From the IMG/VR virus record IMGVR_UViG_3300036881_000003, positions 1 through 27,138 of that record: 27,138 nt of DNA; one strand, written 5' to 3'. The stretch comes from a virus. The notes beneath the pieces are model-generated. The model was not told the DNA's origin and did not search any database. It was given only the letters and a program-made list of their open reading frames with translations. Below are positions 1-16,292 of this stretch, piece after piece (position 1 is the stretch's first letter; the number at the start of each line of letters is the position of its first letter). A program made the position numbers and the translations under genes.

Positions 1-1
1 C

Positions 2-1882: not shown

Positions 1883-1898
1883 GCACCTACGGTAGCAG

Positions 1899-3518: not shown

Positions 3519-4097
3519 TGGCTCTCTCCTCTACTCGGTGTGCAGTAGCACCTTCGGTCCGGTACGGACATCGGGTGCAGCGGCACTTCACTTACATGTC
3601 TTCTTCTCAACCACTACTCGCGACTGCCTTGTACTTCCTCCTACACAGCACCCCCTACCCCACCAAGCGGTGAGTAAGGGGCAGCGGTGTCTCCATTTAC
3701 CACTCGGAGCTTGGCCAGCAGGCGTTGATGCCTTCTGCCACCGGATCGGGGTTCCACACCGACCTCTCCTTGCAGGACCTCAGTTGGTTGCCCAACCAAG
3801 CAGCTCACACCCCGTGTTCAGCCCGGTCCTGATCAACCCGACTCTCGTCGGCGCTGGAGCGCTCAGCCACTGCCGTATCCGCATTCCACGGACTCTTGTG
3901 CACTCGTCCATCAGGTGATGTTGATGAGGTGGACCCGTCGGCTTCCTCGTCAGCTTGTTTCCTTCTCGGCGTCCTGGCTCTATACAGGACTAGCGCTGAC
4001 TCTCTCGTTCTCCAGTTGGCCGGGACTCGGCGTCTGTACCTTCTACATCCCTATCGGAGATAATCCCCACCGAACTCCAGATTTCTTCTGACCGGGC
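3519..4097. other. Gene-poor stretch (about 580 bases) with several hairpins
   Basis: I see no convincing gene here on either strand. It holds perfect short inverted repeats: GTCCTG/CAGGAC (3971-3990, eight-base loop), TTGGTT/AACCAA (3784-3799) and GCGCT/AGCGC (3851-3862). On the minus strand there are only tiny frames: one of 43 codons without a Shine-Dalgarno sequence, and one of 20 codons (starting MWNPDPVAEG) with AAGGAG before a GTG near 3753. A TATAGA on the minus strand (3979-3984) could be a -10 box but lacks a good -35. The stretch must contain the promoter of the run starting at 3518, unless transcription passes the terminator at 4098-4127. A structured leader or small RNA is possible. 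Confidence 0.5.
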
Positions 4098-4127
4098 GCG
4101 AAAGAACCCCCGGCCGAAGCCAGGGGT
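4098..4127 (-). terminator. Rho-independent terminator of cassette C
   Basis: The minus-strand RNA forms ACCCCUGGC-UUCG-GCCGGGGGU, a nine-pair stem with one G-U pair and a very stable cUUCGg loop. It is followed by UUCUUU. It lies shortly downstream of the SprT-like gene's stop. Confidence 0.9.
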
Positions 4128-4149
4128 CCTCTGCTTGTGGTCTGGTGAG

Positions 4150-4722
4150 TCAGGCTACGGACAGCGTGTCCATGCAGGCCGGGCACACTGGCGGGCCGGA
4201 CAGGTCAAGCCACTTCTGCGTGGTGCGCACGGTGTAGCCGCACTCGTCGCACTCGCACTTGATCATGCGGGTGGTCTGCGTCGGCTTGCGGCTGGTGCCA
4301 CCACCGACCGAGAAGACCGGGTGCGGGTACGGGCCGATCTTGTCAACCACCTTGGCGATCTTCGCCACCAGCTCAGGTGAAGCCGTGGTGCAGGTCATCT
4401 TGCCGACCAAGCCAATCTCAGTGGCCAGCTTGCGGAAGCCTGCACCGTGCTTGGCGTCGGGGCGGGCTGCGTGCACCAGCTCGTGCACCAGGACCGCGGC
4501 CACTTCGGTGGAGGTCGTCAACTTCGGGTGCACGAAGATGTGCGGGGCGTGGTCGTCGCTGGCCAGTGCGTTCCAGCACTCCCCGATGGTGTTGGACCGG
4601 CACCCGTTGGACGGGAATCCCGTGCTCAGGTGCAGGGTCTCGGGCAGCTCTCCCAGGTACCAGGGGCGTACCGCCTGCGTGAACTTCTGAAGCCATTGCT
4701 CTCTCGTGCTGGTCTTGGTCAT
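4150..4722 (-). CDS. SprT-like zinc metalloprotein
   Basis: A 190-residue protein with the SprT-like signature: VLVHELVHAA supplies HExxH (His80, Glu81, His84) and KHGAGF the third ligand (His92). A C-terminal zinc ribbon follows (CECDEC at 156-161, CPAC at 180-183). SprT/Spartan-type proteins are zinc proteases or nucleic-acid-associated proteins; eukaryotic Spartan degrades DNA-crosslinked proteins. Phage versions have no settled role. I chose the ATG at 4722 because GGGAGG lies nine bases before it. The in-frame ATG at 4749 is only seven bases from the -10 box and could be used only leaderlessly. It is the sole gene of cassette C, with its own promoter and terminator. Confidence 0.9.
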   Translation of the reverse strand: MTKTSTREQWLQKFTQAVRPWYLGELPETLHLSTGFPSNGCRSNTIGECWNALASDDHAPHIFVHPKLTTSTEVAAVLVHELVHAARPDAKHGAGFRKLATEIGLVGKMTCTTASPELVAKIAKVVDKIGPYPHPVFSVGGGTSRKPTQTTRMIKCECDECGYTVRTTQKWLDLSGPPVCPACMDTLSVA

Positions 4723-4755
4723 CTTGGTTGCCTCCCGTGTAGTGGTCATATCGCA

Positions 4756-4785
4756 AGACTACTCTTGCCTGTTGACACAAGTCAA
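4756..4785 (-). promoter_or_regulatory. Promoter P1 (cassette C) with overlapping palindrome
   Basis: On the minus strand TTGACT (4780-4785) and TAGTCT (4756-4761) are 18 bases apart, a sigma-70-like promoter. A 14-base palindrome, TTGACACAAGTCAA on the plus strand (4772-4785), covers the -35, as expected of a repressor operator. Near-identical copies occur at 6203-6232 and 8200-8229, and the GTTTACACGCA on the upstream side is shared with the copy at 8200. Confidence 0.85.
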
Positions 4786-4820
4786 CCTGTTTACACGCAT
4801 TCCTGGACCTTCTCCGGGCG

Positions 4821-4854
4821 CGAAAGATCCCCGGTCAACAAGTGGCCGGGGACC
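4821..4854 (-). terminator. Terminator of cassette B
   Basis: The minus-strand RNA pairs GGUCCCCGG with CCGGGGAUC (nine pairs including G-U) around an 11-base loop and runs into UUUCGCGCCCGG. The distal GGGCGCGAAAG (plus strand) is shared with the terminator at 4098, marking a repeated cassette end. Only about 25 bases separate it from the far side of promoter P1. Confidence 0.85.
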
Positions 4855-4878
4855 TTCGCTCAGGGTGTTGCAGTGGGG

Positions 4879-5496
4879 TTAGCTGACTGCGATGGTCACC
4901 GCGGGCGAGATACCTTCGCACGCACTCTGGTTCGTGGTGCCGGTCAGGTCCTTGAGCCAGATGGTGGAAGCAGCCGTGTTGACCGCTCCCGTAAGAGTCT
5001 GGCCGTTCCCGTAGCCCGTGAACAACGTAGGCGTCAGAGTGGACGGTGCCTGGCCCGGCAGGACTGACGTTTGCGTGTTCACGATGAACCACGCAGCCAG
5101 ACAACCGACCACGGGAGCGTCAGCGTTAGCAGCGTTCAGGACGTTGCCACTTCCGTCTGTCGACACCGTCGCCACCACTGTTGAGACGTGCGTGGTTCCA
5201 GGCGTAGACACGTTCGCTGAGACGATCTGCTCATTTGTGGCAACGGGTGTCGTGCCGACCGTTGGTGTCAGGCCAGCAAGCGTGCCCGACATCTCGATGG
5301 TCGTACCTGCTGTCACCGTGAGCGTCACTGGTGCGGCCGTGCCGGTTGTCGGATTCGACGCAGGACCGGTACCGGTACCTTCACCGAAGAACACCGCCGC
5401 CGCGACACCTGCAAACAGCAACACGCCGATGACCGGGAGTACCACCGTCTTGCGCATCCAACGCCGATGAGTCTTCAAATTCTGGTCTGCCCTCAT
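4879..5496 (-). CDS. Membrane-anchored surface protein, Thr/Val-rich (205 aa)
   Basis: A short basic N-terminus (HRRWMRK) precedes one hydrophobic segment (VVLPVIGVLLFAGVAAAVFF). Then come about 165 residues rich in Thr, Ser, Val and Gly, with only two Cys (VGCLAAW, QSACEG) that could form a disulfide. The topology implies a protein exported and anchored at the N-terminus, with a beta-sandwich-like outer domain. No family recognised. I chose the ATG at 5496; an in-frame ATG at 5577 lies within a strong intercistronic hairpin (5534-5582). As the last gene of a prophage cassette, it is a candidate for altering the lysogen's surface, for example to block superinfection. Confidence 0.75.
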   Translation of the reverse strand: MRADQNLKTHRRWMRKTVVLPVIGVLLFAGVAAAVFFGEGTGTGPASNPTTGTAAPVTLTVTAGTTIEMSGTLAGLTPTVGTTPVATNEQIVSANVSTPGTTHVSTVVATVSTDGSGNVLNAANADAPVVGCLAAWFIVNTQTSVLPGQAPSTLTPTLFTGYGNGQTLTGAVNTAASTIWLKDLTGTTNQSACEGISPAVTIAVS

Positions 5497-5533
5497 TGCT
5501 TCTTCTCTCTCTCCGATGACACGTTGCCAGCGG

Positions 5534-5582
5534 GTGAGACACCTGCTCGACCAGTGGGGGGCGCTGGGAGCAGGCATCTCAC
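5534..5582 (-). promoter_or_regulatory. Long intercistronic hairpin
   Basis: Plus-strand arms GTGAGA-CA-CCTGCTC-GA-CCAG and CTGG-GAGCAGG-CA-TCTCAC enclose a nine-base loop: 17 base pairs interrupted by two small internal bulges. It begins seven bases after the stop of the upstream gene and ends 37 bases before the next start. There is no U-tract. It could be an RNA-stability or processing element, or an attenuator setting the output of the surface-protein gene. Confidence 0.75.
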
Positions 5583-5588
5583 TCGCCG

Positions 5589-5900
5589 TCAGCGAGTTGG
5601 GGTCCTGTCTGAGACGTACTGCCGGGCCGTGAACGACATCGACGCTGTCGCGATGGCCATGGTGTCTGGCCTGAGACCGGGGGAATGCTGAACGACGCGG
5701 GCAATGCGGGCTGCCTTGTAGCGCGCGAAAGCTAGAAACACTTCCGACTCTCGTGCGTCAAGGACGAACGGCCCGATGCCAAACCGATCCGTCGTGATGG
5801 TCACGAGACCACCGCTACTCGTTGCCCGGACCGCACCATACGGTCCAGGCAAGCCGTTGTGCGTGATGGTCACGATGCCGCCAACCAAGGCAGGCACCAT
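5589..5900 (-). CDS. Small protein of unknown function (103 aa)
   Basis: Begins MVPALVGGIVTITHNG and contains two related beta-hairpin-like segments (GGIVTITHNGLPGPYG and GGLVTITTDRFGIGPF), followed by a helical stretch (SEVFLAFARYKAARIARVV). No recognised family. The start overlaps the end of the upstream gene by about 31 bases; a GTG two codons earlier is an alternative. Middle gene of cassette B. No export signal, so it is probably cytoplasmic. Confidence 0.55.
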   Translation of the reverse strand: MVPALVGGIVTITHNGLPGPYGAVRATSSGGLVTITTDRFGIGPFVLDARESEVFLAFARYKAARIARVVQHSPGLRPDTMAIATASMSFTARQYVSDRTPTR

Positions 5901-6163
5901 GAGCACGGCAGGGCGTGAAACTGGCCAGAGCCGTCACACAGAGGGCACTCGTGGAACCTCCGGTCAGGTGTGTCCCGGAAGTGCTCGCGGCGGTCGTTCG
6001 TGCGCCGGTCCTGAGCGACCAGGCGAGAGACCTCGTCCTGACGGAGCGGACGGTAGCTCTCGCACTCCTCGAACTGGTAGGGATTCGACCAGCCCGGTGC
6101 AGCGGTCTTCTCCACATTGAGTGCCAGTTGTCTGGCCATGAACTGTGGGTCATGTAGAACCAT
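5870..6163 (-). CDS. Zinc-knuckle protein with DnaJ-type CxxCxGxG motif (97 aa)
   Basis: The C-terminal part reads HECPLCDGSGQFHALPCSWC, with Cys73, Cys76, Cys87 and Cys90 forming a four-Cys zinc site of the kind found in DnaJ-like and other small RNA- or protein-binding modules. The first 70 residues are hydrophilic, with several Arg/Asp-rich stretches and no known domain. The ATG at 6163 follows GGGGG at four bases. It is the first gene of cassette B, directly downstream of promoter P2. A related CxxCxGxG module is fused to the prohead protease of this phage. Confidence 0.75.
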   Translation of the reverse strand: MVLHDPQFMARQLALNVEKTAAPGWSNPYQFEECESYRPLRQDEVSRLVAQDRRTNDRREHFRDTPDRRFHECPLCDGSGQFHALPCSWCLPWLAAS

Positions 6164-6202
6164 GACGCCCCCAATCTTCCGACCACCTTGGCCGATGAGG
6201 CA

Positions 6203-6232
6203 AGACTAGGCTTGCCTGGTGACACAAGTCAA
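6203..6232 (-). promoter_or_regulatory. Promoter P2 (cassette B) with overlapping palindrome
   Basis: Minus-strand TTGACT (6227-6232) and TAGTCT (6203-6208) with an 18-base spacer. The operator-like repeat GTGACACAAGTCAA (6219-6232) covers the -35. It lies between the divergent genes starting at 6163 and 6255, so a factor bound here could affect both. Conservation with the other copies ends just upstream of the -35, where the Shine-Dalgarno of the divergent gene begins. Confidence 0.85.
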
Positions 6233-6254
6233 CCGATCTGTCCGGAGGTAGCCT

Positions 6255-6506
6255 GTGCGAATGCCATTCGAGAGCCGCCCCATCGACCCTCGTGCTTACC
6301 CTGCGCTAGAGCGCGCCGTGAAGGCCACGGCTGAGCTACGCAGTGGCGAAGCCAGGCACGCTCAGCTCATCCAAGACCGGGCGGAAGCCATCGGAGAGGC
6401 AAGAGGGCACGGATTGACTCTCGATGCCATAGCGACGCGCCTGGGCGTGTCTCGTGAGCGTGTGAGGCAGATGGCCAGCCCGAACGCGAAGAACCCCCGG
6501 CCGTAG
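6255..6506 (+). CDS. Small helix-turn-helix protein, sigma region 4-like (83 aa)
   Basis: Residues about 52-73 (HGLTLDAIATRLGVSRERVRQM) form a helix-turn-helix closely resembling sigma-70 region 4. The preceding 30 residues are a probable helix (GEARHAQLIQDRAEAIGEAR). The GTG at 6255 follows GGAGG at seven bases; the ATG two codons on is less well spaced. Apart from the integrase this is the only convincing plus-strand gene. It is divergent from cassette B, with promoter P2 in the gap of about 90 bases. Its last codons and stop lie within the shared terminator hairpin. It is a natural candidate regulator of P1-P3, though it is not a classical repressor. Confidence 0.8.
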   Translation: MRMPFESRPIDPRAYPALERAVKATAELRSGEARHAQLIQDRAEAIGEARGHGLTLDAIATRLGVSRERVRQMASPNAKNPRP

Positions 6507-6514
6507 CCAGGGGT
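6487..6514 (-). terminator. Terminator of cassette A, possibly bidirectional
   Basis: The minus-strand RNA is ACCCCUGGC-UACG-GCCGGGGGU followed by UUCUUCG, a UNCG tetraloop terminator nearly identical to the one at 4098. The plus-strand gene at 6255 ends inside it, so it may also stop transcription from that side, although the plus-strand tail (CCTCGTGTCTC) is only weakly U-rich. Confidence 0.85.
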
Positions 6515-6540
6515 CCTCGTGTCTCAGGTTTGCAGTGTTG

Positions 6541-6972
6541 CTACCGGCTCTTGAGCCACGCTTCTGCCGCAGCCCTACCTGCCTCTTCCGCACTACCCTG
6601 CCGATTCTTCAGCCACTCGGCACGAGCAGCCGCACCGTAAGCCTCTACGCTGTCGAACAGCGCAGGATTCGGAACGGTAATGACTGGCTTCGTGACGGTC
6701 GGAGTGGTGACCGTTCGCTTCGTGCCGCACTTGTTGGCTGCCTCTTGTGTCCGGTGATTGACCGAACACCCGGCATGGCGGTAGACAGGGCTGCGACGGC
6801 GTGGCTTCGTGTTGAGTTTGCGAGTGATGCTGTAGCCCGCGTTGCTAACCGGGTGCAGCGACCGGCGTGCTCTCTTGACACTCTTCGGAGTGGCGGCACG
6901 CTTCACTGACCGCACAGGATGAGCCACACGGCGCACCTTGCGGGGGACGAGTGCTCTGGTCAGGAACCCCAT
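6541..6972 (-). CDS. Very basic protein of unknown function (143 aa)
   Basis: The first 80 residues are dominated by Arg and Lys (for example RKVRRVAHPVRSVKRA), suggesting contact with nucleic acid or with anionic lipid or wall polymer. A central HAGCSVNHRTQEAANKC with two Cys is followed by a Thr/Val/Pro linker. A helical C-terminus carries a repeated AEWLKNR / AEAWLKSR element. I do not recognise the family. Its start overlaps the lipoprotein stop as TGATG. Last gene of cassette A. Confidence 0.7.
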   Translation of the reverse strand: MGFLTRALVPRKVRRVAHPVRSVKRAATPKSVKRARRSLHPVSNAGYSITRKLNTKPRRRSPVYRHAGCSVNHRTQEAANKCGTKRTVTTPTVTKPVITVPNPALFDSVEAYGAAARAEWLKNRQGSAEEAGRAAAEAWLKSR

Positions 6973-7457
6973 CAGGACGCCGGGGGCAGACCGAGGTCAT
7001 GCCGCAGTGCCGAACTGTCAGCAGAAGCCGCAGCAAGGTCGGTATTCAGACCGGGGGTGTTCACTTCTAGGGCATCGGCTGACAACCGGTCAAGGTCGGC
7101 AACGAATGCCTTCGCGTCTGCCTGTGTATTCGCAGGGTAGGTCAGGACTTGCAACTGGTTAGCCGCAGTCTTGAAACACGCTGACAGTGCGGCATAGTTC
7201 GTCGTGCCGCTCTGTGCCGAATCGCAAGTGTTGAGCGTGGTCAAGATGCTCAGCACTTGCGGACCGACCGCCGTAGTCGTCGCAACCGGTGCGGGTGCCA
7301 CGGTGGTGGTCGGTGCCGGTGCTCTAGCAGTCACTGGCGCTGACGCCTTCGCTGCTGGCTTGGTTGCCGTGCTCGAACCACAAGCACCCACCGCGAGTCC
7401 GGCGATTGCCACGACCGCCAGGCTCACGACTAGCTTCTGAATCTTGCGGGCACTCAC
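6972..7457 (-). CDS. Prophage-encoded lipoprotein (161 aa)
   Basis: The N-terminus has a basic n-region (SARKIQK), a hydrophobic core (LVVSLAVVAIAGLA) and the lipobox VGAC with Cys26 as the predicted lipidation site. A Pro/Thr/Ala-rich spacer (about 30-65) leads to a helical domain (about 68-161) with two Cys (NTCDSAQ, SACFKTA) likely joined by a disulfide. Prophage lipoproteins can block DNA injection by superinfecting phages, but no specific exclusion family is recognised. The GTG start overlaps the upstream stop as GTGA. The first 37 bases nearly duplicate the 5' end of the preceding gene. Confidence 0.85.
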   Translation of the reverse strand: MSARKIQKLVVSLAVVAIAGLAVGACGSSTATKPAAKASAPVTARAPAPTTTVAPAPVATTTAVGPQVLSILTTLNTCDSAQSGTTNYAALSACFKTAANQLQVLTYPANTQADAKAFVADLDRLSADALEVNTPGLNTDLAAASADSSALRHDLGLPPAS

Positions 7458-7930
7458 GACGACACCGGTGCGGCAGGCAGACCGTTGTCACTGTTGGCGA
7501 ATCTGCGCTCGTACACCCATGCGACGATGCCGACGATGGAAGCAACGAGCGTCAACCAAAGGCCCGCCCCGACACTTGCACCGACCGTGGTGCCAAACAC
7601 CTGGGTGTGGGCGATAGTCGAGACATGGATGGTGTCATAGAGACTCGTGCCCAAAGCCACCAAGAGTGCGACCGGCACACCGACCTTGACCAAAATCTTG
7701 CTGACCATCTTCTCGACGTTAGTCCTGAGGTAGACCAACACGCCGACCAGTGCCACAGCGCCCGCAACCAAGGTGATGCGACCATCGCCTGAAGTCCCGT
7801 TCACGCTGAAGACCAGCACCGAAGCCCACGGCAAGAATGCACCGAGGATGATAGCGACGGCTGCTCCAAAGGCAGTCCAAACGGCTGCCTGGCTCACTAC
7901 TGTTGCCTTCTGAATCCTGCGGGCACTCAT
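7454..7930 (-). CDS. Four-helix membrane protein (158 aa)
   Basis: Four hydrophobic segments are visible: about 14-38 (VWTAFGAAVAIILGAFLPWA), 52-69, 77-96 and 116-144, with a short charged C-terminus (VYERRFANS). The first extracytoplasmic loop contains NGTSGDGRITL. This resembles widespread small actinobacterial membrane proteins whose FLPW and GTxGDG motifs flank the first loop; their function is unknown. The ATG at 7930 overlaps the upstream stop as ATGA. Its coupling with the lipoprotein gene suggests the two act together at the membrane. Confidence 0.8.
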   Translation of the reverse strand: MSARRIQKATVVSQAAVWTAFGAAVAIILGAFLPWASVLVFSVNGTSGDGRITLVAGAVALVGVLVYLRTNVEKMVSKILVKVGVPVALLVALGTSLYDTIHVSTIAHTQVFGTTVGASVGAGLWLTLVASIVGIVAWVYERRFANSDNGLPAAPVSS

Positions 7931-8157
7931 GCTGCTGCCTCCGGGTACAGGTACTTTGTCCGACCTTCAGTGACGAGACCCGATGCCATGATTTCGGCAA
8001 AGCCACTGGCAGGACGCTCCGGGACTTCTTCGGTGGCTTGGATCTTCTTGACGAACCGCTCGGCGCGGTCCTGGTCCCACCCGTGCAGGTTGACCATGTA
8101 CTCGACAAGGTTGTCGAAATCGACCTTCTTGCCCTTCTCTGCCTTGCGTCCGAACAT
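7927..8157 (-). CDS. Small charged protein (76 aa), first gene of cassette A
   Basis: Starts MFGRKAEKGKKVDFDNLVEY and is hydrophilic, with a probable helix (WDQDRAERFVKKIQA). No recognised family, no export signal. GGAGAG lies about ten bases before the ATG. It is directly downstream of promoter P3 and coupled by ATGA to the membrane-protein gene, so it may be a cytoplasmic partner of that protein. Confidence 0.75.
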   Translation of the reverse strand: MFGRKAEKGKKVDFDNLVEYMVNLHGWDQDRAERFVKKIQATEEVPERPASGFAEIMASGLVTEGRTKYLYPEAAA

Positions 8158-8179
8158 CTTGGACTCTCTCTCCGTTAGC

Positions 8180-8193
8180 GGGACTTGTGTCCC
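8180..8193. promoter_or_regulatory. Second operator-like palindrome below P3
   Basis: GGGACTTGTGTCCC is a palindrome with the same GACTTGTGTC core as the element over the -35 of P1-P3, in the opposite orientation. It lies just downstream of the P3 -10 box, in the leader of cassette A. P1 and P2 have no such second copy. Confidence 0.55.
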
Positions 8194-8199
8194 ACTGCA

Positions 8200-8229
8200 A
8201 GACTAGCCTTCCCTGGTGACACAAGTCAA
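8200..8229 (-). promoter_or_regulatory. Promoter P3 (cassette A) with overlapping palindrome
   Basis: Minus-strand TTGACT (8224-8229) and TAGTCT (8200-8205), 18-base spacer, with GTGACACAAGTCAA (8216-8229) over the -35. Upstream conservation with P1 extends through GTTTACACGCA. It lies between the end of the structural operon and cassette A. I see no convincing terminator for the structural operon before it, so read-through from the late operon is possible. Confidence 0.85.
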
Positions 8230-8247
8230 CCCGTTTACACGCAGGCC

Positions 8248-8418
8248 CTAGACGGCCCTGGAGAGCCGTGTGGGGCCGGGTTCGTGCCGAGTGATGGTTA
8301 CTACGTGACCTTGGTGTTCAAGGACAAGGACGAGCGCCTGTGCCGACTGGTGCAGGCTGAAGCGCTCGGAGTAGGCGCTGTCCCATTCCACCAACCAGTA
8401 CCGGTGCGCGGCGTACAT
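8248..8418 (-). CDS. Small protein at the end of the tail operon (56 aa)
   Basis: The frame starts MYAAHRYWLVEWDSAYSERF and ends with a basic PTRLSRAV; there is no membrane segment or known domain. The ATG lies two bases after the upstream TAG with no Shine-Dalgarno sequence, so translation is probably by reinitiation. Amino-acid use looks protein-like (aromatic-rich N-terminus, amphipathic middle), and no other frame in this gap does. It is the last structural-operon gene before promoter P3. Confidence 0.6.
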   Translation of the reverse strand: MYAAHRYWLVEWDSAYSERFSLHQSAQALVLVLEHQGHVVTITRHEPGPTRLSRAV

Positions 8419-8420
8419 GG

Positions 8421-8636
8421 CTAGACACTGGTCACTGTCTCGTAGTGGGCAGCTCCCCCGACCACCAGCTTGTTCAGTGTGGTGTCGAAGTAGAGAAACC
8501 CTTTGACGTACGCGGGTCGCGCAGCGGTGGTGTATTGGGGCGGACGCCAGTTGCGCTCAAGGTGAGCAATCCGCTTCTCCATGTCCTTGATCTTGGCGAC
8601 CAGGAAGCTGGACGCTGGCAGGTTCAGTTGTCCCAT
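8421..8636 (-). CDS. Small tail-associated protein (71 aa)
   Basis: Residues about 12-30 (LVAKIKDMEKRIAHLERNW) form a short coiled coil. The C-terminal half, with AYVKGFLYFDTTLNKLVVGG, resembles the peptide-like repeat at the end of phage fibre and appendage proteins (FDTTLNKL is typical of tail-fibre segments). The ATG at 8636 follows GAGG at five bases and lies eight bases after the hub gene. It could trimerise as a small fibre or as a chaperone for one. Confidence 0.7.
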   Translation of the reverse strand: MGQLNLPASSFLVAKIKDMEKRIAHLERNWRPPQYTTAARPAYVKGFLYFDTTLNKLVVGGAAHYETVTSV

Positions 8637-8643
8637 GGTGACC

Positions 8644-11600
8644 TCATGTCGGTGGTGCTGAGATGGTGGCACTCGGAGGAAGGTTGAAGGTGAGCGTGAC
8701 CGTGGAGACGCCTTCTTCGGTGATGGCGTAGTCCAGGCCGACGATGCGCCAGTCAGAATCGTTGCCGTCAGGGAATCGTTCGTCAGGCTCGATGATCCAA
8801 CGCACGTCGTCACCGAGTGCGTATGCAGTCGGGTCCGGGTCGCTGAAGAGTGGCATGATCAGCGTCGGCACCGTGATCGGGTACGCCTGCATGGTCAGGT
8901 CTTCATCGACCACAGCGGCAAGCACATCTGCACTGAGGATGTTGGTGTACGAAACCACCTGCTCAAGTCTCGGCCAGCCTTCAGAGGTCGGCGTGATGGG
9001 ACCGGGGACGTATTGGGTCAGCGCTATAGCAGAGCCAGAACCAGTGCCATGGATGGTGGAACCTTGCGAGGTTGCATCCTGAGGGTACGAGTAGTCGTGC
9101 GTTGCGGTGGTGACGATGGTGATGCTGTCGACGTTGGCGAGTCGACCCCGGCGCGGATACGCCATGTTGAGTTTCAGAGTCGGCACGCCACTGGTGCTGT
9201 AAGCAACGTCGATGGCATAGTCGAAACCGACTCCGTAGCCCATGGCCGTCAGGCTGGTGACGATGGAGTCGACCGTGGCGATAGACGAGAGCGGGTAGGT
9301 CTCCACCACCCAATCACCCGTGGGGCCAGTACCACCAGGCGTCGGAGATCCGTTGTTCTGGTTGATGGCGAGTGGGAATCCGGTGGTCGAACCGAACGCA
9401 GAATCCGGCAGACTTGTGACGGGGTCTGTGGTGGCCAAAGCATCGGAGATGACCTGAGCAGCAATCGCCATCGGGTCCCCACCCGCGGCCCACGTTGCGG
9501 TGTAGTCAGCAGCTTGGACCCTACTGGCGAAGTAGGACCAGAATTCCTTGCCTTGAATCGGCACCGCGTCAGCACTGGACCTCTGGAAGTTGACGGTCCA
9601 AATCAGGAACCCGGCAAGCAGGTGTCCCGCGTAGTCGATGAACAACGCGGTGCGACCGGGCTGAATGATCTGTCCAGGGAACAGCTTGCGAACCTTCGGG
9701 TCCAAGAAGTTCAGGGAAGCAGAGAAGGTGCCGGGCGTGTTCAGTCTCTGCGACCATGTGACGCCAGTGAACGGCAACTCTGCGAGCATGTCGCCAGTCA
9801 TCACATCGAACAGCAGGTACGTGATCGGGTTGGTCGTCGGCGTCTTGATGGCCAACGGCAGTGGGCCAGGCGGTGGTGGTGGTGGAATGGCAGTGAGACC
9901 GTTGGCGATGCTCGTGAAAGAGACAATGCCGTAACCATTGCCCGTGCCAGGAACCAAGCCAGCAGCGGTCGCCACGAACACAGCAGAGGAAGAAGCAGAC
10001 GGTGCCACGACTCCCGCTGCTGTAGCAGTCACCGTTGTTGCAGTGAACGAACCTGCGCCCGTAGCCCTGTTGGCCAGCAAGACGTTCTCACCAGCAAAGT
10101 AGGTCGGCAGTACGTCGTAGGCGTAGTCACTCTCATCAGTGACATAGATCAGGTTCGCGCCGAGAGCAACGCTCGCGAGCATCTGCGTCGTGGCGTTGGC
10201 CAGTGGGGTGGCCTGAACGATGTGGCAGATGAGAATGCCAGCGTTGGTGTAGCTAGGCGGTGGGTACAGCAGGAAGTTCGCGTAGATGTCCTCGAAGACA
10301 CAGATGCCGTCGCAAACGGTTGGAGAAATGTAGCCGGGGTCCGGGGTCGTACCGGGGTTGAGAATCGTTTTGGAACCAGCGTGCGCAGCGTGCACGAAAG
10401 CAGTCAGGGTGGTGTAGTACGCCACCTTCGTGGACAGAGTGCTTCCCTCATCGAAGAAGATGCTGTGGATGCCGTAGAGGGTTGACCACTTCGTGACCAT
10501 CGCCTCAACGGTGCCGGTCGCTGTGGCACCGTAGTTGGTGGGCACATAGCCAAGGACTGTCCAACCAGCAGCGATGGCAGCAGCGATTGCCGTGGTGTAG
10601 TCGGAGTCAACTACCGTGCCGGGTCCACTGTTGACGTTGGCGATGACGTAGCCGCGGCCACCAGAAGGTGAACCAAAAGACGCACCCCACATGCCAACCG
10701 TTGGGTACTGGTAAGCAGGGATGATGTACGTGGCGTCCAGAGGAATGCCCGCATCGTTGTAGCTCGTGATGGTCTGCGAACCACTGGCGGGCAGACTGAG
10801 CGCACCAACAGCCAACGCGGTGACGGTCGTGTCGCATTCAGCCAAACCGGAGACGGCGGGCGTGCCGACTGCCGACGCGGTGACGGCGACAGTGAGAGCA
10901 CCCATCGACCGCCATGTGCCGACGGCAGTTGCGGTGACGCTGACTGTTCCGGGAGCGGTGGCTAGGTCAGGGTTCGGAGCATCGAGCAGGACGTTCTCGT
11001 TGGTGAAGTAGCCCGGCAACACGTCGTAGTTGCCATCAGACTCATCGGTGACGTACTGAAGTGTTGCCCCGAGTGCTGCGCTGGCTGCGATCTGACTCAC
11101 TGCGTTGATGATCGGCACATTCTGAACAATGTGGCCGATCATCACAGGCGAGCCGGTGTAGTTCGGAGGTGGCGTCGACTGGAACGTCGCGTAGGTGTCC
11201 TCGAAGACGATGAGTCCGTCACAGACTGCCGTGGCGAAGTAGCCAGAGTTCGGAACCGTGCCAGTGTTCAGGATCGACAGCGAACCACCATGTGCAGCGT
11301 GCACGAAAGCAGTCAGCGTCGTGTAGTACGCGACCTCAGTGGACAGCGCGCTCGCGCGGTCGAAGAAGATGTCGTGGACACCGTAGAGAGTCGACCATCG
11401 AGTGATGTTGGTTTCGACGGTGGCAGATGCTATGCCGCCGACGTTCGTGTCGACGTAACCAAGCACTCGCCAACCAGCAGACCGTGCATTAGCGATGGCA
11501 GTCGTGTAGTCGGAGTCGACCGTTGTGCCGGGACCAGAAGCCGGGTTGGCGATGACGTAACCGGGGTATCCGTTCGGAGCGTCGGCATAGAGCGTCGGCC

Positions 11601-11715
11601 ACAGTCCGACAGTCGGGTACTGGTAGGCCGGGATGATGAAGGTGGCAGCCACCGGCACGCCAGCACTGTTGCGGGTCGTGATGGTCTGCAAACCTGTGCC
11701 TGCAAAGGTAGTCAC
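8644..11715 (-). CDS. Tail hub protein with two N-terminal spherulin-4 (GH135-like) glycosidase domains
   Basis: A 1023-residue fusion. Domains at about 8-245 and 311-548 match the spherulation-specific family 4 / GH135 fold: IIPAYQYPTVG, GPGT-VDSDYTTAI, VLGYV-TN, WSTLYG, IFFD, ILN-GT-P, VFED-YA. Conserved acidic/amide positions occur in both copies (Asp119, Asn150, Glu172; Asp422, Asn453, Glu475) with identical spacing, so both look catalytically competent. Each domain is followed by degenerate VTATAVG-type linker repeats. A polyproline hinge (611-617) leads to a C-terminal hub domain (about 630-1023) of the siphovirus Gp37-like kind (SQRLNTPGTFSASLNF, GFLIWTVNF). GH135 enzymes cut galactosamine-containing polysaccharide, so I infer a virion-borne depolymerase. 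The start is a GTG after AGG. Confidence 0.88.
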   Translation of the reverse strand: MTTFAGTGLQTITTRNSAGVPVAATFIIPAYQYPTVGLWPTLYADAPNGYPGYVIANPASGPGTTVDSDYTTAIANARSAGWRVLGYVDTNVGGIASATVETNITRWSTLYGVHDIFFDRASALSTEVAYYTTLTAFVHAAHGGSLSILNTGTVPNSGYFATAVCDGLIVFEDTYATFQSTPPPNYTGSPVMIGHIVQNVPIINAVSQIAASAALGATLQYVTDESDGNYDVLPGYFTNENVLLDAPNPDLATAPGTVSVTATAVGTWRSMGALTVAVTASAVGTPAVSGLAECDTTVTALAVGALSLPASGSQTITSYNDAGIPLDATYIIPAYQYPTVGMWGASFGSPSGGRGYVIANVNSGPGTVVDSDYTTAIAAAIAAGWTVLGYVPTNYGATATGTVEAMVTKWSTLYGIHSIFFDEGSTLSTKVAYYTTLTAFVHAAHAGSKTILNPGTTPDPGYISPTVCDGICVFEDIYANFLLYPPPSYTNAGILICHIVQATPLANATTQMLASVALGANLIYVTDESDYAYDVLPTYFAGENVLLANRATGAGSFTATTVTATAAGVVAPSASSSAVFVATAAGLVPGTGNGYGIVSFTSIANGLTAIPPPPPPGPLPLAIKTPTTNPITYLLFDVMTGDMLAELPFTGVTWSQRLNTPGTFSASLNFLDPKVRKLFPGQIIQPGRTALFIDYAGHLLAGFLIWTVNFQRSSADAVPIQGKEFWSYFASRVQAADYTATWAAGGDPMAIAAQVISDALATTDPVTSLPDSAFGSTTGFPLAINQNNGSPTPGGTGPTGDWVVETYPLSSIATVDSIVTSLTAMGYGVGFDYAIDVAYSTSGVPTLKLNMAYPRRGRLANVDSITIVTTATHDYSYPQDATSQGSTIHGTGSGSAIALTQYVPGPITPTSEGWPRLEQVVSYTNILSADVLAAVVDEDLTMQAYPITVPTLIMPLFSDPDPTAYALGDDVRWIIEPDERFPDGNDSDWRIVGLDYAITEEGVSTVTLTFNLPPSATISAPPT
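10072..11694 (-). repeat. In-gene tandem duplication of the glycosidase module (period 909 bases)
   Basis: The two spherulin-4 domains are direct repeats offset by 909 bases (303 codons). Near-identical DNA persists in places, such as CAGCGTGCACGAAAGCAGTC at 10386 and again at 11295. Elsewhere the copies have diverged, more at the nucleotide than at the protein level. Confidence 0.9.
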
Positions 11716-11728
11716 GCTGACCTACGGA

Positions 11729-12862
11729 TCAGGTCTTGACGAAGACGGCGACACCCATGGACGGCTGAAGGTTGTTGTGGCCCCAGCCCGCAACAGATAC
11801 ACCGTCATCGGTAGTACCAGAGATCCCAACAGTGAAACCGTGATTATGGTCTGTGTTGTTCGGCCCCATGTTGCCCGACTCTGACCAACCCCACGTCCCC
11901 GTGAAGGCAGGCAGTTTCCAACCGCTGCCAGGCGAATCGAGCAGGACGTTCCAGCCAGGGGAGTGGATGTGTGTTGCAGACTCTCCACCAGTCGTGCCAG
12001 CACCGGAACCAGAGACATTGTGATAATGCGGAGCCAGTTCGGCTTGGCTCAGTGTGTGCACAGCCTCACCTAGCACACCATTGCCATACACCCCACCGAT
12101 GGTGAAGGACGGTGCTTGGTTAGAGCCGACAGAACCGACACCGACACCGACCACACCTCGCCTATCAGGAACGTTGAACGTGGTCGATCCGTCACCGGGA
12201 CCGTAAGTGGTGCTGATGGCAGCGAACAGAGCCGCATAGGTTGTGCGGCTGTAGGCCGTGCCGTCGCAGTAGAGCCAACCGGCCTGCGATGCCATGGACG
12301 CAGATTCCTTGTAGTCACCAGGTCTCCACTGACCTGAGCTGATGATCTCTCGGTTGTCGCCTGAGGTGTAGGAAGCCGACGAACTTGCCGATGCCGGGAT
12401 GAGCCAGGTGCTCAAGAGCAGACTGTTGTGCGGAGTGGCGGGCACGAGCGGAGTGGCGGCGGGCGTTCCGTAAGTGACAAGCAGTCCCCACTGGTCAGAG
12501 CCACCAGGCAGCGTCGGATTGCCAGCCGGGTAGGTGGTGTCGTTGACCGTTGCCGTGATGAGGACGTACATCGGCTCTGAGCCGTTCGGGGTGATGGGCA
12601 GATTGACAGTCGCATCATTGAATGCGAAGTACAGGCCCTGATATGGCCCCTGTGTGCCAGGAATCCACGCCTGTCCTTCGGCCACGTTGATGGAGTTGCC
12701 GGTGCCAGCAGAGCAAGCCAAGTCACCTGCGTTGACGACGCCACCAAGCGCGCCCGTCAGTCCACCGATCCCCGGTGGCAGCAGTGAACCAAGCGCGAGT
12801 CGGAAGAGTTGCGCGGAGTGGTACTGATCTTCAATTGCGAAGGGTGGATTCTCAGCAGTCAT
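11729..12862 (-). CDS. Tail fibre / receptor-binding protein with collar domain
   Basis: A 377-residue protein. The centre (about 190-235) carries the phage tail collar domain: GWLYCDGTAYSRTTYAALF and FNVPDRRGVVGVG. The C-terminus is rich in His pairs (HYHN, HIHS, DHNHG), typical of metal-stabilised trimeric fibre tips, and ends NLQPSMGVAVFVKT, a common collar-family ending. The N-terminal part probably attaches to the baseplate. AAGGA precedes the ATG by nine bases. It sits between the distal tail protein and the hub, so a receptor-binding or adhesion role is likely; the receptor is unknown. Confidence 0.88.
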   Translation of the reverse strand: MTAENPPFAIEDQYHSAQLFRLALGSLLPPGIGGLTGALGGVVNAGDLACSAGTGNSINVAEGQAWIPGTQGPYQGLYFAFNDATVNLPITPNGSEPMYVLITATVNDTTYPAGNPTLPGGSDQWGLLVTYGTPAATPLVPATPHNSLLLSTWLIPASASSSASYTSGDNREIISSGQWRPGDYKESASMASQAGWLYCDGTAYSRTTYAALFAAISTTYGPGDGSTTFNVPDRRGVVGVGVGSVGSNQAPSFTIGGVYGNGVLGEAVHTLSQAELAPHYHNVSGSGAGTTGGESATHIHSPGWNVLLDSPGSGWKLPAFTGTWGWSESGNMGPNNTDHNHGFTVGISGTTDDGVSVAGWGHNNLQPSMGVAVFVKT

Positions 12863-12880: not shown

Positions 12881-13819
12881 CTAGGTCAGCGACACGAATG
12901 CCGGTGCATACGCAATCGAGCACGTAGGTGCGGGAGATGGCAGGGACGGGTCTTGAGATGAGAAGTCGATGAAGGACAATCCCGGTGGCAGGTCGAACCA
13001 CTGCGAACCGGACACGAGCCACCCACGTCGGCTAGAAGCGACCGCTGAACCGCTCGCAGTGAACATCACTTCGTGGCTGTCGGTGTCGATGGTTAGGGTG
13101 TCGCCTGCATTGAGTGTGTACCCGGCACCTTGAAGGGGGTTGTAGAACGTGAGCGATTCACCCGTGGTGGCGTTCGTGACAGTCGGAGTTGTCACGGGAC
13201 CGGTGATGGTGATGACGGGCAGGCAGTTGATGTTGCCTGAGTTGGTGACTTGCATGGAGCCGTATGGCGATGCAGCACCGAATGTCACATTGAAGGTGAC
13301 CGGGAACGTCAGTCCACCGGAGAACGCCGGTAGTGCCACTGAGCTGACCGCGGAAGGTCCATAGATGCGCGGGTCGGTAGCGTGTAAACCGACTATGACG
13401 CTCTTGGCGAAGCTGCCCGTCGTCCATGCCAGATCAATGGGAATCGCGCGCTTGCGCACACGACACATCGACACGAGCTGCGGAAGGTCAGGCAGCTTCA
13501 CCCACAACGGTGTTTCAGTTTGCCCGTCTGGCGGTGGCACCGTTGCAGCGGCCATCTTCGTCAATGCGCTCTGCAATGAGACCCCATCCGACGCCGAGTC
13601 CAGCGTCAGTGTGATGTCTCGCCCACCTAGCAGGTCGAGTCCGGCAAATTCCCCGACTGTTCTCGGACGCGCGATGTCACCGGTACGAACCGTGGGCAGG
13701 TCCAGACCTTCGATGCCGAGAATGGCGTAAGCGGTTCCAGCGCCCATCTTCAATCCGTTGTAGGAGATTTGGAAGTCTGCGAGAACTGGCGGGGTGATGG
13801 ATGGTGACGGGAAACTCAT
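12881..13819 (-). CDS. Distal tail protein (siphovirus Dit-like)
   Basis: A 312-residue protein lying directly after the tape measure, where Dit proteins are found. Features of the family include an N-terminal beta domain, a central segment with WTTGSFAKSVIVGLHATDPRIYG, and the C-terminal SGNINCLPVITITGP ... DTLTIDTDSHEVMF block typical of siphovirus tail component proteins. Dit hexamers join the tail tube to the hub and carry the receptor-binding apparatus. The ATG at 13819 is used; the longer frame back to 13951 would read into the tape measure gene. Confidence 0.85.
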   Translation of the reverse strand: MSFPSPSITPPVLADFQISYNGLKMGAGTAYAILGIEGLDLPTVRTGDIARPRTVGEFAGLDLLGGRDITLTLDSASDGVSLQSALTKMAAATVPPPDGQTETPLWVKLPDLPQLVSMCRVRKRAIPIDLAWTTGSFAKSVIVGLHATDPRIYGPSAVSSVALPAFSGGLTFPVTFNVTFGAASPYGSMQVTNSGNINCLPVITITGPVTTPTVTNATTGESLTFYNPLQGAGYTLNAGDTLTIDTDSHEVMFTASGSAVASSRRGWLVSGSQWFDLPPGLSFIDFSSQDPSLPSPAPTCSIAYAPAFVSLT

Positions 13820-13832
13820 GGGGTGCCTTTCA

Positions 13833-16292
13833 TCAGACAGCCGCCACGCGGAGTGCCCAGCCAACCTCAGCGGCGATCTGATAGGGGTCTGCCTGGCTCG
13901 CGACGTTGACCTCAACGTTGTTCGTGGTCGACTCCCCACCCATCGCGCCACCTAGCTGGTTGTTCGGAGTTATGGTGCCTGAGGTTGAAGGGGTGAACAG
14001 TTCCATTCCCTTTTCACCGACCCATGCCGTTTGACCAGCAGCCAACGGACCACCCGTAGCCAAGTGTGGAATTTCAGGGATTAGTTTGGAAGGAGCGTGC
14101 CAGCCGAGAAATGAAATGCTCGCAACGGTACTGTCAATCGGGTCGATGATGCCGGAGTTGATGGCGCTAATGATGCCGTTGACAATGGTCGTGCCTATGC
14201 CACTGAATACGCCGCCTACGGCACTGGCTGCACCAGAGATGGCACTCCCGATGTCACCTGGCAGCTTCCCGAATCCCGACACGATGGGGTCGTAGACGTT
14301 CGTCTTGATCCACGTCCATGCACCAGAGAGTCCACCGAACACAGTGCCGACGATGTCGCCTAGACCGGCTAATAGTTTGCCGGGAATACCGGTGAAGTAG
14401 CTAACCAGCGGAGTCGTGACGTTCGTCTCAATCCATTGCTGAGAGGTAGTAAGTGCGTGCCAGATGGTGGTCACGATGTCGCCCAGACCAGTGACAAATC
14501 GAGCGGGAATTCCAGTCACGTAGGTAATCAGTGGGGCGATGACATTCGAGTCGATCCATTGAACGGAGTTCTTCAGTGCGCCCCAAATGGTGCCGACGAT
14601 GTCACCGAGGCCAGTCACGATCTCGCCCGGCAGAGCGGTGAAGAAGCCGACCACATCAGAGATCAGCTTGGACACGTCGGAGCGGATCGTGTTCCAGTGC
14701 TTGACGATCTCAAGCACGAGCAGACCGAGTGGACCGGTCACCACTGTGACGATGATCGGGATGATTGTGGACAGGTGATCCTTGACCCAATCCCAGCAGT
14801 CCTTGACCGCGCCCTTGATGTCCCTCCAAACGTCGTCAAGCAGCTTCTTGCAGAGCTGCCAGTGCGTCACAACCAACATGGCGACGATGAGCACCAGGCC
14901 GATGGGACCAAGCATGGCGGACATGCCCTCTCCACCGGCCGTGCCTGCTTCTTCCATCGTGGTGCCAGTCTCTGTGGCAGCAGTGCCCATGCCCTCGAAG
15001 GACAGTTGCGTCTCTTCACCAGCAGCGGTGGATTCTTCGGCCTGCACTGTTTGCGCCCGGCCTAGTCCTGCGATCTTTCCCACCAGGTCACCGATGGCCT
15101 TGCCAGCCTTGCCGACGCTACTGATGGCGTCTCCGGTCGCCTTGACGAATTTGGTGCCCATACCGATGATGTAGACCGCGATGGCTGTTGCCAAGATTCC
15201 GCCGATGACAGCACCGAGTGCTTCAGCGATGACTTTGTGTTTCGTCAGCCACGTCACGATGTCAGTGACCACTTTGATGGCCTTGGTGATCATCGGAATC
15301 AGAACTTCGCCAAACTTAATTCCCAAATTGGTTACGGATGCCTTGGCAATGTCGAGCTGACCACCGAGTGTTTCGCCGTAAGCCTTGGCAGCACCATGCA
15401 CCTTCTGGTCAATGGCGTCGAGAGTGGAACCGCCTGCCTTCTGGTCCTTGGTCAATTGCTGCTGCGAAGCGTCGACCTTCAAGTGAGCAGCCCGAAGCGC
15501 GTCCTGCGCCTTTGCTCCGGTCAGCGTCCCGCTGTTGACCTGGTCCTGAGTGCTGAGCAGACCAAGGTTGGCGGTGGCCAGATTCTTCTGGTCGGTAGCC
15601 AGTGTCTTGGCCTTGTCCGAACCAACGTCGATGTTGATGCCGAGAGACTTGAGACCCTTTGCGTTTCCCTGGTACGCCTTGGTCACCAGGTTGGCAGCAT
15701 CGGTGAGCGAGATGTTCTTGGCTCGCGCAACGTCCATTTCCGTGTTCAATAGCTTGGTCTGCGTTGCCTGGTCCTTGGTGACTCGCACGTTGACGGTCGC
15801 AGCACTAGTGACTGCGGTCTGGTTGAAACCGTTGGCCTGTCCAGCCGCGGTGTTCCGGTTCAACTCTCCCGTGTATGTCTTGGCGGATTCACCATTGTTC
15901 TTGGCAGCTACGTCGTACTGCGCAGCGGCCTTGTTCTGGTCCTCTGCCAGCTTCGTAGACTCAGCGCCAACAGCAGCTAGACCCGCGACACCAGCGATGG
16001 TGGCGACCTTTCCTAGCTGAGTGAACTTGGCAGTGAGACCCGCGACGCCACCTCCAGCCTTGTCCATTTCGGTGCCGATTTTCGAGACAGAACCAGAGAA
16101 TGGGATGCCGAAGCTGCCCATCTTCTGGCCCAGCTTGTCGAAGAAGCCACCGATCTTGGAGGTGGAGGAATCCATTGCTGCTTGACTCTTCTTGGCAGCC
16201 GCGTCAGCAGCAACACCCGTCTCCTCGAATGCCTTGACGGCACCCGTGGACGATCCGCTGATAATTGCGCGCAGGGTGACATCAGAACTCAT
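13833..16292 (-). CDS. Tape measure protein
   Basis: An 819-residue protein with a helical, Ala/Lys/Gln-rich N-terminal half, hydrophobic segments at about 355-380, 460-476 and 508-530, and three 41-residue tandem repeats at 556-678 (consensus GLGDIV-TIW-AL---QWI-TNV--PL). The C-terminus has LATGGPLAAG ... VGEKGMELFTP, a standard tape-measure ending. It sets tail length and is ejected with the DNA; by the usual rule of about 0.15 nm per residue it implies a tail near 120 nm. GAGGA lies about nine bases before the ATG. Confidence 0.95.
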   Translation of the reverse strand: MSSDVTLRAIISGSSTGAVKAFEETGVAADAAAKKSQAAMDSSTSKIGGFFDKLGQKMGSFGIPFSGSVSKIGTEMDKAGGGVAGLTAKFTQLGKVATIAGVAGLAAVGAESTKLAEDQNKAAAQYDVAAKNNGESAKTYTGELNRNTAAGQANGFNQTAVTSAATVNVRVTKDQATQTKLLNTEMDVARAKNISLTDAANLVTKAYQGNAKGLKSLGINIDVGSDKAKTLATDQKNLATANLGLLSTQDQVNSGTLTGAKAQDALRAAHLKVDASQQQLTKDQKAGGSTLDAIDQKVHGAAKAYGETLGGQLDIAKASVTNLGIKFGEVLIPMITKAIKVVTDIVTWLTKHKVIAEALGAVIGGILATAIAVYIIGMGTKFVKATGDAISSVGKAGKAIGDLVGKIAGLGRAQTVQAEESTAAGEETQLSFEGMGTAATETGTTMEEAGTAGGEGMSAMLGPIGLVLIVAMLVVTHWQLCKKLLDDVWRDIKGAVKDCWDWVKDHLSTIIPIIVTVVTGPLGLLVLEIVKHWNTIRSDVSKLISDVVGFFTALPGEIVTGLGDIVGTIWGALKNSVQWIDSNVIAPLITYVTGIPARFVTGLGDIVTTIWHALTTSQQWIETNVTTPLVSYFTGIPGKLLAGLGDIVGTVFGGLSGAWTWIKTNVYDPIVSGFGKLPGDIGSAISGAASAVGGVFSGIGTTIVNGIISAINSGIIDPIDSTVASISFLGWHAPSKLIPEIPHLATGGPLAAGQTAWVGEKGMELFTPSTSGTITPNNQLGGAMGGESTTNNVEVNVASQADPYQIAAEVGWALRVAAV
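14259..14627 (-). repeat. Three 123-base coding repeats in the tape measure gene
   Basis: Residues 556-596, 597-637 and 638-678 are 41-residue repeats, each with GLGDIV near the start and a (T/S)NV motif near residue 28. The first two are closest (TGLGDIV-TIW-AL--S-QWI); the third is more diverged. Tape-measure genes often change length by whole repeats, which alters tail length. Confidence 0.85.

What the first reader, a model, noticed from the sequence alone, without database searches (positions are those of the whole stretch)
8644..11715. Tail hub fused to two tandem GH135-like (spherulin-4) glycosidase domains
Spherulin-4 domains are known from fungal GH135 enzymes acting on galactosamine-rich polysaccharide and from secreted bacterial proteins. 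Here two complete copies precede a siphovirus hub domain in one polypeptide, joined by linker repeats and a polyproline hinge. Candidate catalytic Asp/Asn/Glu are kept in both. This implies a virion-borne depolymerase at the tail tip and so a galactosaminoglycan-like layer on an actinobacterial host, a link I do not know as established.
Basis: partly seen in the sequence, partly recalled or inferred. Interest (0 to 1): 0.9.

Follow-up and report, generated by a model that had tools for sequence, protein, structure and literature searches.

The report
Phage tail hub carrying biofilm-cutting enzymes
A virus of soil-type actinobacteria seems to have fused two copies of a biofilm-cutting enzyme (a relative of the fungal Sph3) to the protein at the centre of its tail tip, probably to cut through a galactosamine-rich coat on its host; each part is a known kind, but the combination has not been described as such.

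Summary
ORF 8644-11715 (minus strand, 1023 aa) has two Spherulin-4/GH135 domains (PF12138, E=8.8e-68) followed by a complete gp27-type tail hub (phrog_1885 E=1e-40; predicted fold Z about 22 to solved hubs). Copy 1 folds like Aspergillus Sph3 (Z 26.7, 2.1 A over 227 residues). The Asp/Asn/Glu triad is kept in both copies; dN/dS of 0.16-0.28 suggests both are constrained. No other hub gene is seen and no good internal start precedes the hub, so the glycosidases should be part of the virion. The nearest hub relative (60% identity) lacks the extension. A second hub (L085) carries two GH26-like domains in the same place. GH135 domains also occur in cultured Rothia and Streptococcus thermophilus phages. 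The window's copies branch with Acidimicrobiaceae, which encode PelF, Agd3-type deacetylases and GH114. Best reading: a virion-borne galactosaminan depolymerase. Activity, substrate and host are untested. The novelty claim is weakened: Spherulin-4 in actinobacterial GAG/Pel-like operons and in viral contigs (read there as a sporulation gene) is already on record. New variant of a known kind.

The parts
8644..11715 (-). CDS, 1023 aa, GTG start: tandem GH135 domains + linkers + tail hub
10999..11637 (-). GH135/Spherulin-4 domain copy 1 (residues 27-239)
   Evidence: PF12138 122 bits; predicted fold Z 26.7 to Sph3 5c5g, rmsd 2.1 A, 227 residues
10093..10725 (-). GH135/Spherulin-4 domain copy 2 (about residues 331-541), 64% identical to copy 1
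   Evidence: PF12138 114 bits; same element order in the tandem model at pLDDT about 80; dN/dS 0.28 (NG86) to 0.16 (YN00) between copies
11359..11361 (-). D119 codon (= Sph3 Asp166, proposed nucleophile)
   Evidence: invariant in 33 domains; Sph3 D166A is catalytically inactive (PMC8546845)
11266..11268 (-). N150 codon (= Sph3 Asn202 by alignment)
   Evidence: invariant
11200..11202 (-). E172 codon (= Sph3 Glu222, acid/base)
   Evidence: 32 of 33; Glu222 role from PMC12054363
10450..10452 (-). D422 codon, copy 2 nucleophile
10357..10359 (-). N453 codon, copy 2
10291..10293 (-). E475 codon, copy 2 acid/base
10786..10965 (-). linker between the copies with degenerate VTA-x-AVG repeats (residues 251-310)
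   Evidence: predicted disordered, pLDDT about 30
9835..10059 (-). second linker and proline hinge (residues 553-627; PPPPPP at 611-616, bases 9868-9885)
8686..9834 (-). gp27-type tail hub domain (residues 628-1010)
   Evidence: phrog_1885 E=1.2e-40; model pLDDT 86, Z 21-22 to Mu gp44 and similar hubs
11729..12862 (-). neighbouring tail-tip protein with phage Tail Collar domain, candidate receptor-binding protein
   Evidence: PF07484 E=1e-17; N-terminal half resembles its syntenic counterpart in L022 while the C-terminal half differs
12881..13951 (-). Dit-like distal tail protein (real start probably the internal Met near 13820)
   Evidence: PF22768 and phrog_5577; start inferred from sequence
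13833..16292 (-). tape measure protein
   Evidence: phrog_1272 and others

Best explanation
It is the tail hub protein of an actinobacterial siphophage with two GH135 glycosidase domains fused to its N-terminus. Hubs of this type are trimers, so each virion would carry about six GH135 domains on flexible, proline-hinged arms around the tail tip. They most likely cut an alpha-1,4-linked N-acetylgalactosamine-rich exopolysaccharide of the host (a Pel/GAG-like galactosaminan) so that the tip can reach the wall and its receptor; the neighbouring Tail-Collar protein is a candidate receptor binder. Shown computationally: GH135 homology and fold, kept catalytic residues, constraint on both copies, hub fold, single hub gene in the fragment, lineage-specific fusion. 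Inferred: trimer stoichiometry (from solved hubs), endo-galactosaminidase activity (from Sph3), substrate on the host surface, and a host in or near Acidimicrobiaceae.
For: PF12138 twice, E=8.8e-68. Sph3 by sequence, E=5e-12, and by fold, Z 26.7; the next best solved structures are GH191 galactosaminidases (Z about 15), and PelA (13.0-13.5) stands further down the list. D119 = Asp166, whose D166A form in Sph3 is inactive; E172 = Glu222. D and N invariant and E in 32 of 33 domains. dN/dS 0.16-0.28. Complete hub fold, Z 16.8-22 to Mu gp44, 80alpha, T4 gp27, Douge and Bxb1 hubs. The hub profile hits only this gene in the window, and no start codon with a good ribosome site precedes the hub part. 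L022, the nearest hub (60%), is 388 aa with the same Dit / tip-protein / hub order and no GH135. L085 carries two GH26-like domains, a proline stretch and the same hub. GH135 also sits in a fibre-like protein with a long extra C-terminal part (L011), proteins with collagen-like N-termini (L012, L014), a tail-region protein of Rothia phage Spartoi and a protein of S. thermophilus phage VA460. S. thermophilus needs a pel gene for biofilm (PMC7112168). Window copies are sister to Acidimicrobiaceae GH135 (100/97) and Spartoi's to Kocuria's (94/92). Acidimicrobiaceae genome G002 encodes PelF, a 9-TM protein, Agd3/CBM87 proteins and two GH114 in one cluster.
Against: No enzymatic data exist for any phage or bacterial GH135 that I found; Sph3 is the only characterised member cited in PMC12054363. 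The structure is predicted, not solved; copy 2 is modelled at lower confidence; I could not measure the cleft geometry. The nearest bacterial homologues (Acidimicrobiaceae) are secreted or surface-type proteins of unknown role. Pfam PelG was not found above cut-off in the bacterial genomes with GH135, so the polymer may not be canonical Pel. Those homologues are only 46% identical, and the host assignment rests on them.
Confidence: 0.74

Rival explanations
1. The GH135 domains act mainly as a binding module: they hold the virion on a GalNAc-containing polymer (adsorption or walking) and hydrolysis is minor or lost, at least in copy 1.
For: Copy 1 departs from copy 2 around the site (D-R, N-T instead of N-P). 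Tandem copies raise avidity. Many phage tail modules are pure lectins (general knowledge).
Against: The catalytic triad is intact in both copies, R after D is common in bacterial members, and dN/dS shows constraint on both. Loss of catalysis would usually relax the triad.
Confidence: 0.13
2. The substrate is another GalNAc- or galactosamine-bearing polymer of the cell wall (for example a wall teichoic or teichuronic acid or a glycosylated surface protein), not an alpha-1,4-galactosaminan exopolysaccharide.
For: Only one GH135 member, Sph3, has been characterised. PelG was not detected above cut-off in these genomes, so the polymer is uncertain.
Against: The closest folds are galactosaminidases of GAG/Pel type. 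GH135 genes in Actinobacteria lie in or near clusters with PelF, GH114 and Agd3-type deacetylases (PMC7229062).
Confidence: 0.1
3. The gene is an auxiliary 'spherulation/sporulation' gene that changes the host, as proposed for viral spherulation-specific family 4 genes in the Atacama study.
For: The Pfam family name; viral SSF genes (mean 1265 aa) reported next to viral hallmark genes (PMC8269230).
Against: Here the domains are covalently part of a complete tail hub in the tail operon, and the family is a glycoside hydrolase. Linkage to fibre-like or tail-region proteins recurs in other phages.
Confidence: 0.02
4. The target is not the host but environmental galactosaminogalactan on fungal hyphae, used to reach or travel along fungi in soil.
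For: Sph3 acts on fungal GAG; the window resembles soil-type actinophages.
Against: GH135 domains in phages branch with bacterial sequences of likely host families, and similar domains occur in phages of oral Rothia and dairy streptococci.
Confidence: 0.01

Closest known systems
Aspergillus Sph3 (GH135 endo-alpha-1,4-N-acetylgalactosaminidase; PDB 5c5g, 5d6t)
   Same: Same Pfam family, same TIM-barrel fold (Z 26.7, 2.1 A), same Asp/Asn/Glu positions
   Different: Sph3 is a single-domain membrane-anchored fungal enzyme needed to make GAG; here two tandem copies are part of a phage tail protein
gp27-type tail hubs (Mu gp44, T4 gp27, phage 80alpha, mycobacteriophages Douge and Bxb1; phrog_1885 in Streptomyces and Arthrobacter phages)
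   Same: Complete hub fold, same place after tape measure and Dit
   Different: The cultured Streptomyces and Arthrobacter relatives are about 370-400 aa with no catalytic N-terminal arm
L085 hub (IMG/VR contig 3300036828_000198)
   Same: Two tandem glycosidase-like domains, proline-rich stretch, then the same hub
   Different: The glycosidase domains are GH26-like (one stretch over the Pfam cut-off), not GH135
Viral 'spherulation-specific family 4' proteins (Atacama viruses, PMC8269230; BFVD entries such as ctPNJ4; A0A6J5SE07 annotated with a tip attachment protein J domain)
   Same: Same domain family in phage genomes
   Different: Interpreted as a sporulation gene in the paper; left as a family name in databases; only A0A6J5SE07 hints at a hub-type fusion (not examined here)
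Actinobacterial agd3 operons with Spherulin-4 and GH114 (Bamford et al. 2020, PMC7229062)
   Same: Same enzyme family, a likely source of the phage domains and the likely makers of the substrate
   Different: Chromosomal biosynthesis and remodelling genes, not virion parts

Membership tests
GH135 / Spherulin-4 (PF12138) | Sequence match to PF12138 above the curated cut-off | tested here: met
   122 and 114 bits against 30.2
GH135 / Spherulin-4 (PF12138) | TIM-barrel fold superposing on Sph3 | tested here: met
   Copy 1: Z 26.7, rmsd 2.1 A, 227 residues. Copy 2 same order of elements, lower confidence
GH135 / Spherulin-4 (PF12138) | Catalytic Asp (Sph3 Asp166) and Glu (Glu222), plus conserved Asn | tested here: met
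   Both copies; residue roles from PMC8546845 and PMC12054363 (that paper prints Asp196, the alignment and PMC8546845 point to Asp166)
GH135 / Spherulin-4 (PF12138) | Hydrolysis of alpha-1,4 GalNAc polymer | not testable with these tools
   Needs an assay
gp27-type tail hub | Hub fold over the whole domain | tested here: met
   Z 16.8-22 to Mu, 80alpha, T4, Douge and Bxb1 hubs over 300-345 residues
gp27-type tail hub | Gene position after tape measure and Dit; only hub gene present | tested here: met
   (the contig may be incomplete)
gp27-type tail hub | Trimer at the tail tip | not testable with these tools
   Inferred from solved hubs
Virion-associated polysaccharide depolymerase | Glycosidase domain covalently in a structural tail protein | tested here: met
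   One ORF, no good internal start before the hub
Virion-associated polysaccharide depolymerase | Degrades a host surface polysaccharide and eases infection | not testable with these tools
   No host in hand
Sporulation or auxiliary metabolic gene | Free protein acting in the infected cell | tested here: not met
   Domains are fused to the tail hub

The most novel reading that the evidence does not exclude
Phages of galactosaminan-making bacteria repeatedly take a GH135 enzyme, perhaps their own host's exopolysaccharide-remodelling gene, duplicate it in some cases and build it into the tail tip, so that viral 'spherulation' genes are an unrecognised class of Pel/GAG depolymerases and mark which uncultured bacteria make such a coat.
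Probability: 0.45. Interest if true: 0.75.

Novelty: new variant of a known kind. Interest (0 to 1): 0.57.

Why it matters
If active, this would be a ready-made, virion-displayed enzyme against Pel/GAG-type biofilm polymers, a substrate class for which I found no phage enzyme in the library searched. It would correct the reading of viral Spherulin-4 genes as sporulation genes, and it gives a genomic marker for galactosaminan coats on Acidimicrobiia and other uncultured actinobacteria. Cultured phages with the same domain (S. thermophilus VA460, Rothia Spartoi) make it testable now.

Tried and rejected
A single-protein viral scan with P0001 found only a contig identical over this protein (L003), which is probably the same population and no independent support. 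A second viral scan with the wider alignment A3 used almost the same pattern and found nothing new, so the count of viral GH135 is a lower bound. Most apparent N-terminal extensions of other hubs (L029, L062, L067, L072, L087, L095) were judged false readings of GC-rich upstream frames. PelG (PF16933) was not found above cut-off in nine actinobacterial genomes with GH135. Bacterial Agd3 homologue L121:99-2228 had no solved relative by sequence. GH135 and PelF co-occur in Acidimicrobiales (2 of 3 against 3 of 115, Fisher p=0.004), but without the genome chosen as centre p=0.07, so I do not lean on it. GH114 Ega3 (6oj1) was not in the list of fold matches shown, which proves nothing. The Sph3 paper itself (Bamford 2015) is not held. 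Micrococcaceae carry GH135 in 5 of 149 genomes, unnamed, so Rothia itself could not be checked. Self-BLAST of the whole protein printed only the full-length match; the repeat was measured by aligning the two copies instead.
Full report
WHAT IS THERE. The ORF 8644-11715 on the minus strand codes for 1023 residues from a GTG. Pfam finds two copies of PF12138, Spherulin-4, with a joint E of 8.8e-68. PHROGs finds phrog_1885, 'minor tail protein', over residues 628-1010 at E=1.2e-40. Upstream on the same strand lie a Tail-Collar protein (11729-12862), a Dit-like protein (12881-13951) and the tape measure protein (13833-16292), so the gene sits where a tail hub belongs. The record is a 27,138-base virus fragment. 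Capsid and terminase proteins are closest to actinobacteriophages: the capsid to Mycobacterium phages, the terminase to Arthrobacter and Gordonia phages.

IS IT GH135. By sequence the N-terminal copy matches Aspergillus clavatus Sph3, the founding GH135 enzyme, at E=5e-12. AlphaFold2 on residues 8-560, with an alignment of 32 rows (the tandem, the two window copies alone and 29 relatives' domains), gives copy 1 at pLDDT about 95 and copy 2 at about 80, with a disordered linker. VIA-align puts Sph3 first with Z 26.7 and 2.1 A over 227 residues; GH191 galactosaminidases follow at Z about 15 and PelA at 13.0-13.5 further down. D119, N150, E172 and D422, N453, E475 align with Sph3 Asp166, Asn202, Glu222. 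Across 33 domains from phages, bacteria and archaea the Asp and Asn are invariant and the Glu is missing in one. Sph3 D166A is catalytically inactive (PMC8546845) and Glu222 is named as a catalytic residue in PMC12054363. The copies are 64% identical; dN/dS is 0.28 (NG86) to 0.16 (YN00), so both have been under constraint since duplication. The Arg after D119 is also seen in Streptomyces GH135 and in the phage protein of L008, so it does not mark a dead copy.

IS IT A HUB. The C-terminal 405 residues model at pLDDT 86 and match solved hubs over about 300-345 residues: Mu gp44 Z 21.3, phage 80alpha 20.8, mycobacteriophage Douge 18.4, T4 gp27 17.5, Bxb1 16.8. It is the only hub hit in the window. 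In-frame ATG/GTG/TTG codons before the hub part lack a recognisable ribosome site, so the enzyme domains should be carried on every hub. Since such hubs are trimers (established for T4 gp27), six GH135 domains per virion follow by inference.

HOW THE FUSION AROSE. The nearest hub relative found, L022 (60% over the aligned hub), is 388 residues long, begins at the hub, and lies in the same order behind a Dit and a tip protein whose N-terminal part resembles the window's collar protein but whose C-terminal part differs. The GH135 arm is therefore a recent, lineage-specific addition. L085 shows the same design with two GH26-like domains (33% identical to each other over 160 residues) before a proline-rich stretch and the same hub. 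Hub-borne tandem glycosidases therefore seem to have arisen at least twice.

HOW COMMON IS GH135 IN PHAGES. Scans found nine other viral contigs. The domain sits in a 929-residue fibre-like protein (L011), behind collagen-like N-termini (L012, L014), behind another fibre-like N-terminus (L016), as short free proteins (L008, L013) and in a BACON-domain protein (L015). Cultured examples are Rothia phage Spartoi gp21, in its tail region with a separate hub gp17, and S. thermophilus phage VA460 AUN43448.1, between holin and lysin. PHROGs v4 gave no Spherulin-4 family for any of the GH135 proteins scanned. BFVD holds several 'Spherulation-specific family 4' siphovirus proteins and one with a tip attachment protein J annotation. 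The Atacama study noted three viral copies and took them for sporulation genes (PMC8269230).

SUBSTRATE AND HOST. On a maximum-likelihood tree the window copies are sisters (96/86), next to GH135 of two peatland Acidimicrobiaceae (100/97), then phage L008; the Spartoi domain pairs with Kocuria, of the same family (Micrococcaceae) as Rothia (94/92). This suggests, but does not prove, that phage GH135 follows the host lineage. Eight of nine actinobacterial genomes with GH135 also carry DUF3492 (PelF N-terminal) and eight of nine carry GH114. In Acidimicrobiaceae G002 one stretch holds PelF (NF038011, 172 bits against a cut-off of 100), a 9-TM protein, two 1750-residue proteins with Agd3/CBM87 domains and two GH114. 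In Pseudonocardia and Streptomyces, GH135 stands directly beside GH114 with epimerase genes nearby and, in Streptomyces, PelF and an Agd3-like protein. These are GAG/Pel-like operons, and Bamford et al. 2020 had already described their kind, with Spherulin-4 genes, in Actinobacteria (PMC7229062). S. thermophilus, host of VA460, uses a pel locus for biofilm in some strains (PMC7112168).

MECHANISM. Proposed: the collar-domain protein (or another tip protein) finds the cell; six GH135 domains on flexible arms cut an alpha-1,4-GalNAc-rich coat around the tip; the hub then meets the wall. Shown by computation: the anatomy, the fold, the kept residues, the constraint, the virion location by covalent fusion. 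Inferred: catalysis, substrate, host, order of events. The rivals are a binding-only role, another GalNAc-bearing wall polymer, an auxiliary gene, or fungal GAG as target.

NOVELTY. Virion-borne depolymerases are a known kind. New here are the GH135 family in that role with an argued mechanism, the N-terminal tandem arm on a hub, and the tie to actinobacterial galactosaminan operons. No paper in the held library described a phage galactosaminidase; that library is not complete.

Noticed in passing
L085:2427-6095 (IMG/VR 3300036828_000198): A 1223-residue hub protein with two tandem GH26-like domains before the same hub fold: a second, independent glycosidase-hub fusion.
   Followed up: partly
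L148 (G002:C61:67000-86500), Acidimicrobiaceae bog_536: A GAG/Pel-like cluster with PelF, a 9-TM protein, two 1750-residue Ig-repeat proteins carrying Agd3/CBM87 domains and two GH114; the same genome has five Spherulin-4 loci.
   Followed up: partly
L153:7863-9149, Streptococcus phage vB_SthS_VA460 (AUN43448.1): A 429-residue GH135 protein between holin and lysin in a phage of S. thermophilus, a species with known pel-dependent biofilm; annotated hypothetical.
   Followed up: partly
L005:6833-7921, Rothia phage Spartoi gp21: GH135 domain in a tail-region protein of a cultured oral actinophage, annotated hypothetical.
   Followed up: partly
L004:4840-6819, Virus Rctr41k_46: Predicted lipoprotein-type start followed by a repeat-rich region and a GH135 domain, on a contig with an integrase: possibly a lysogeny-expressed surface enzyme rather than a virion part.
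   Followed up: no
L126:6582-9785, Ilumatobacteraceae: Two adjacent Spherulin-4 genes, with a PelF gene (L150:1552-3105) upstream on the same contig.
   Followed up: no
window 90-1688: Large serine recombinase (Resolvase + Recombinase + Zn ribbon), so the phage is probably temperate.
   Followed up: no
window 1-8600: No endolysin was recognised among the ORFs scanned; small membrane-type and lipoprotein-type ORFs (6972-7930) follow the hub, so the lysis gene may be novel or outside the fragment.
   Followed up: no
window 12881-13951: The Dit ORF as listed has a spurious N-terminal stretch of about 44 residues overlapping the tape measure gene; the likely start is the internal Met.
   Followed up: no
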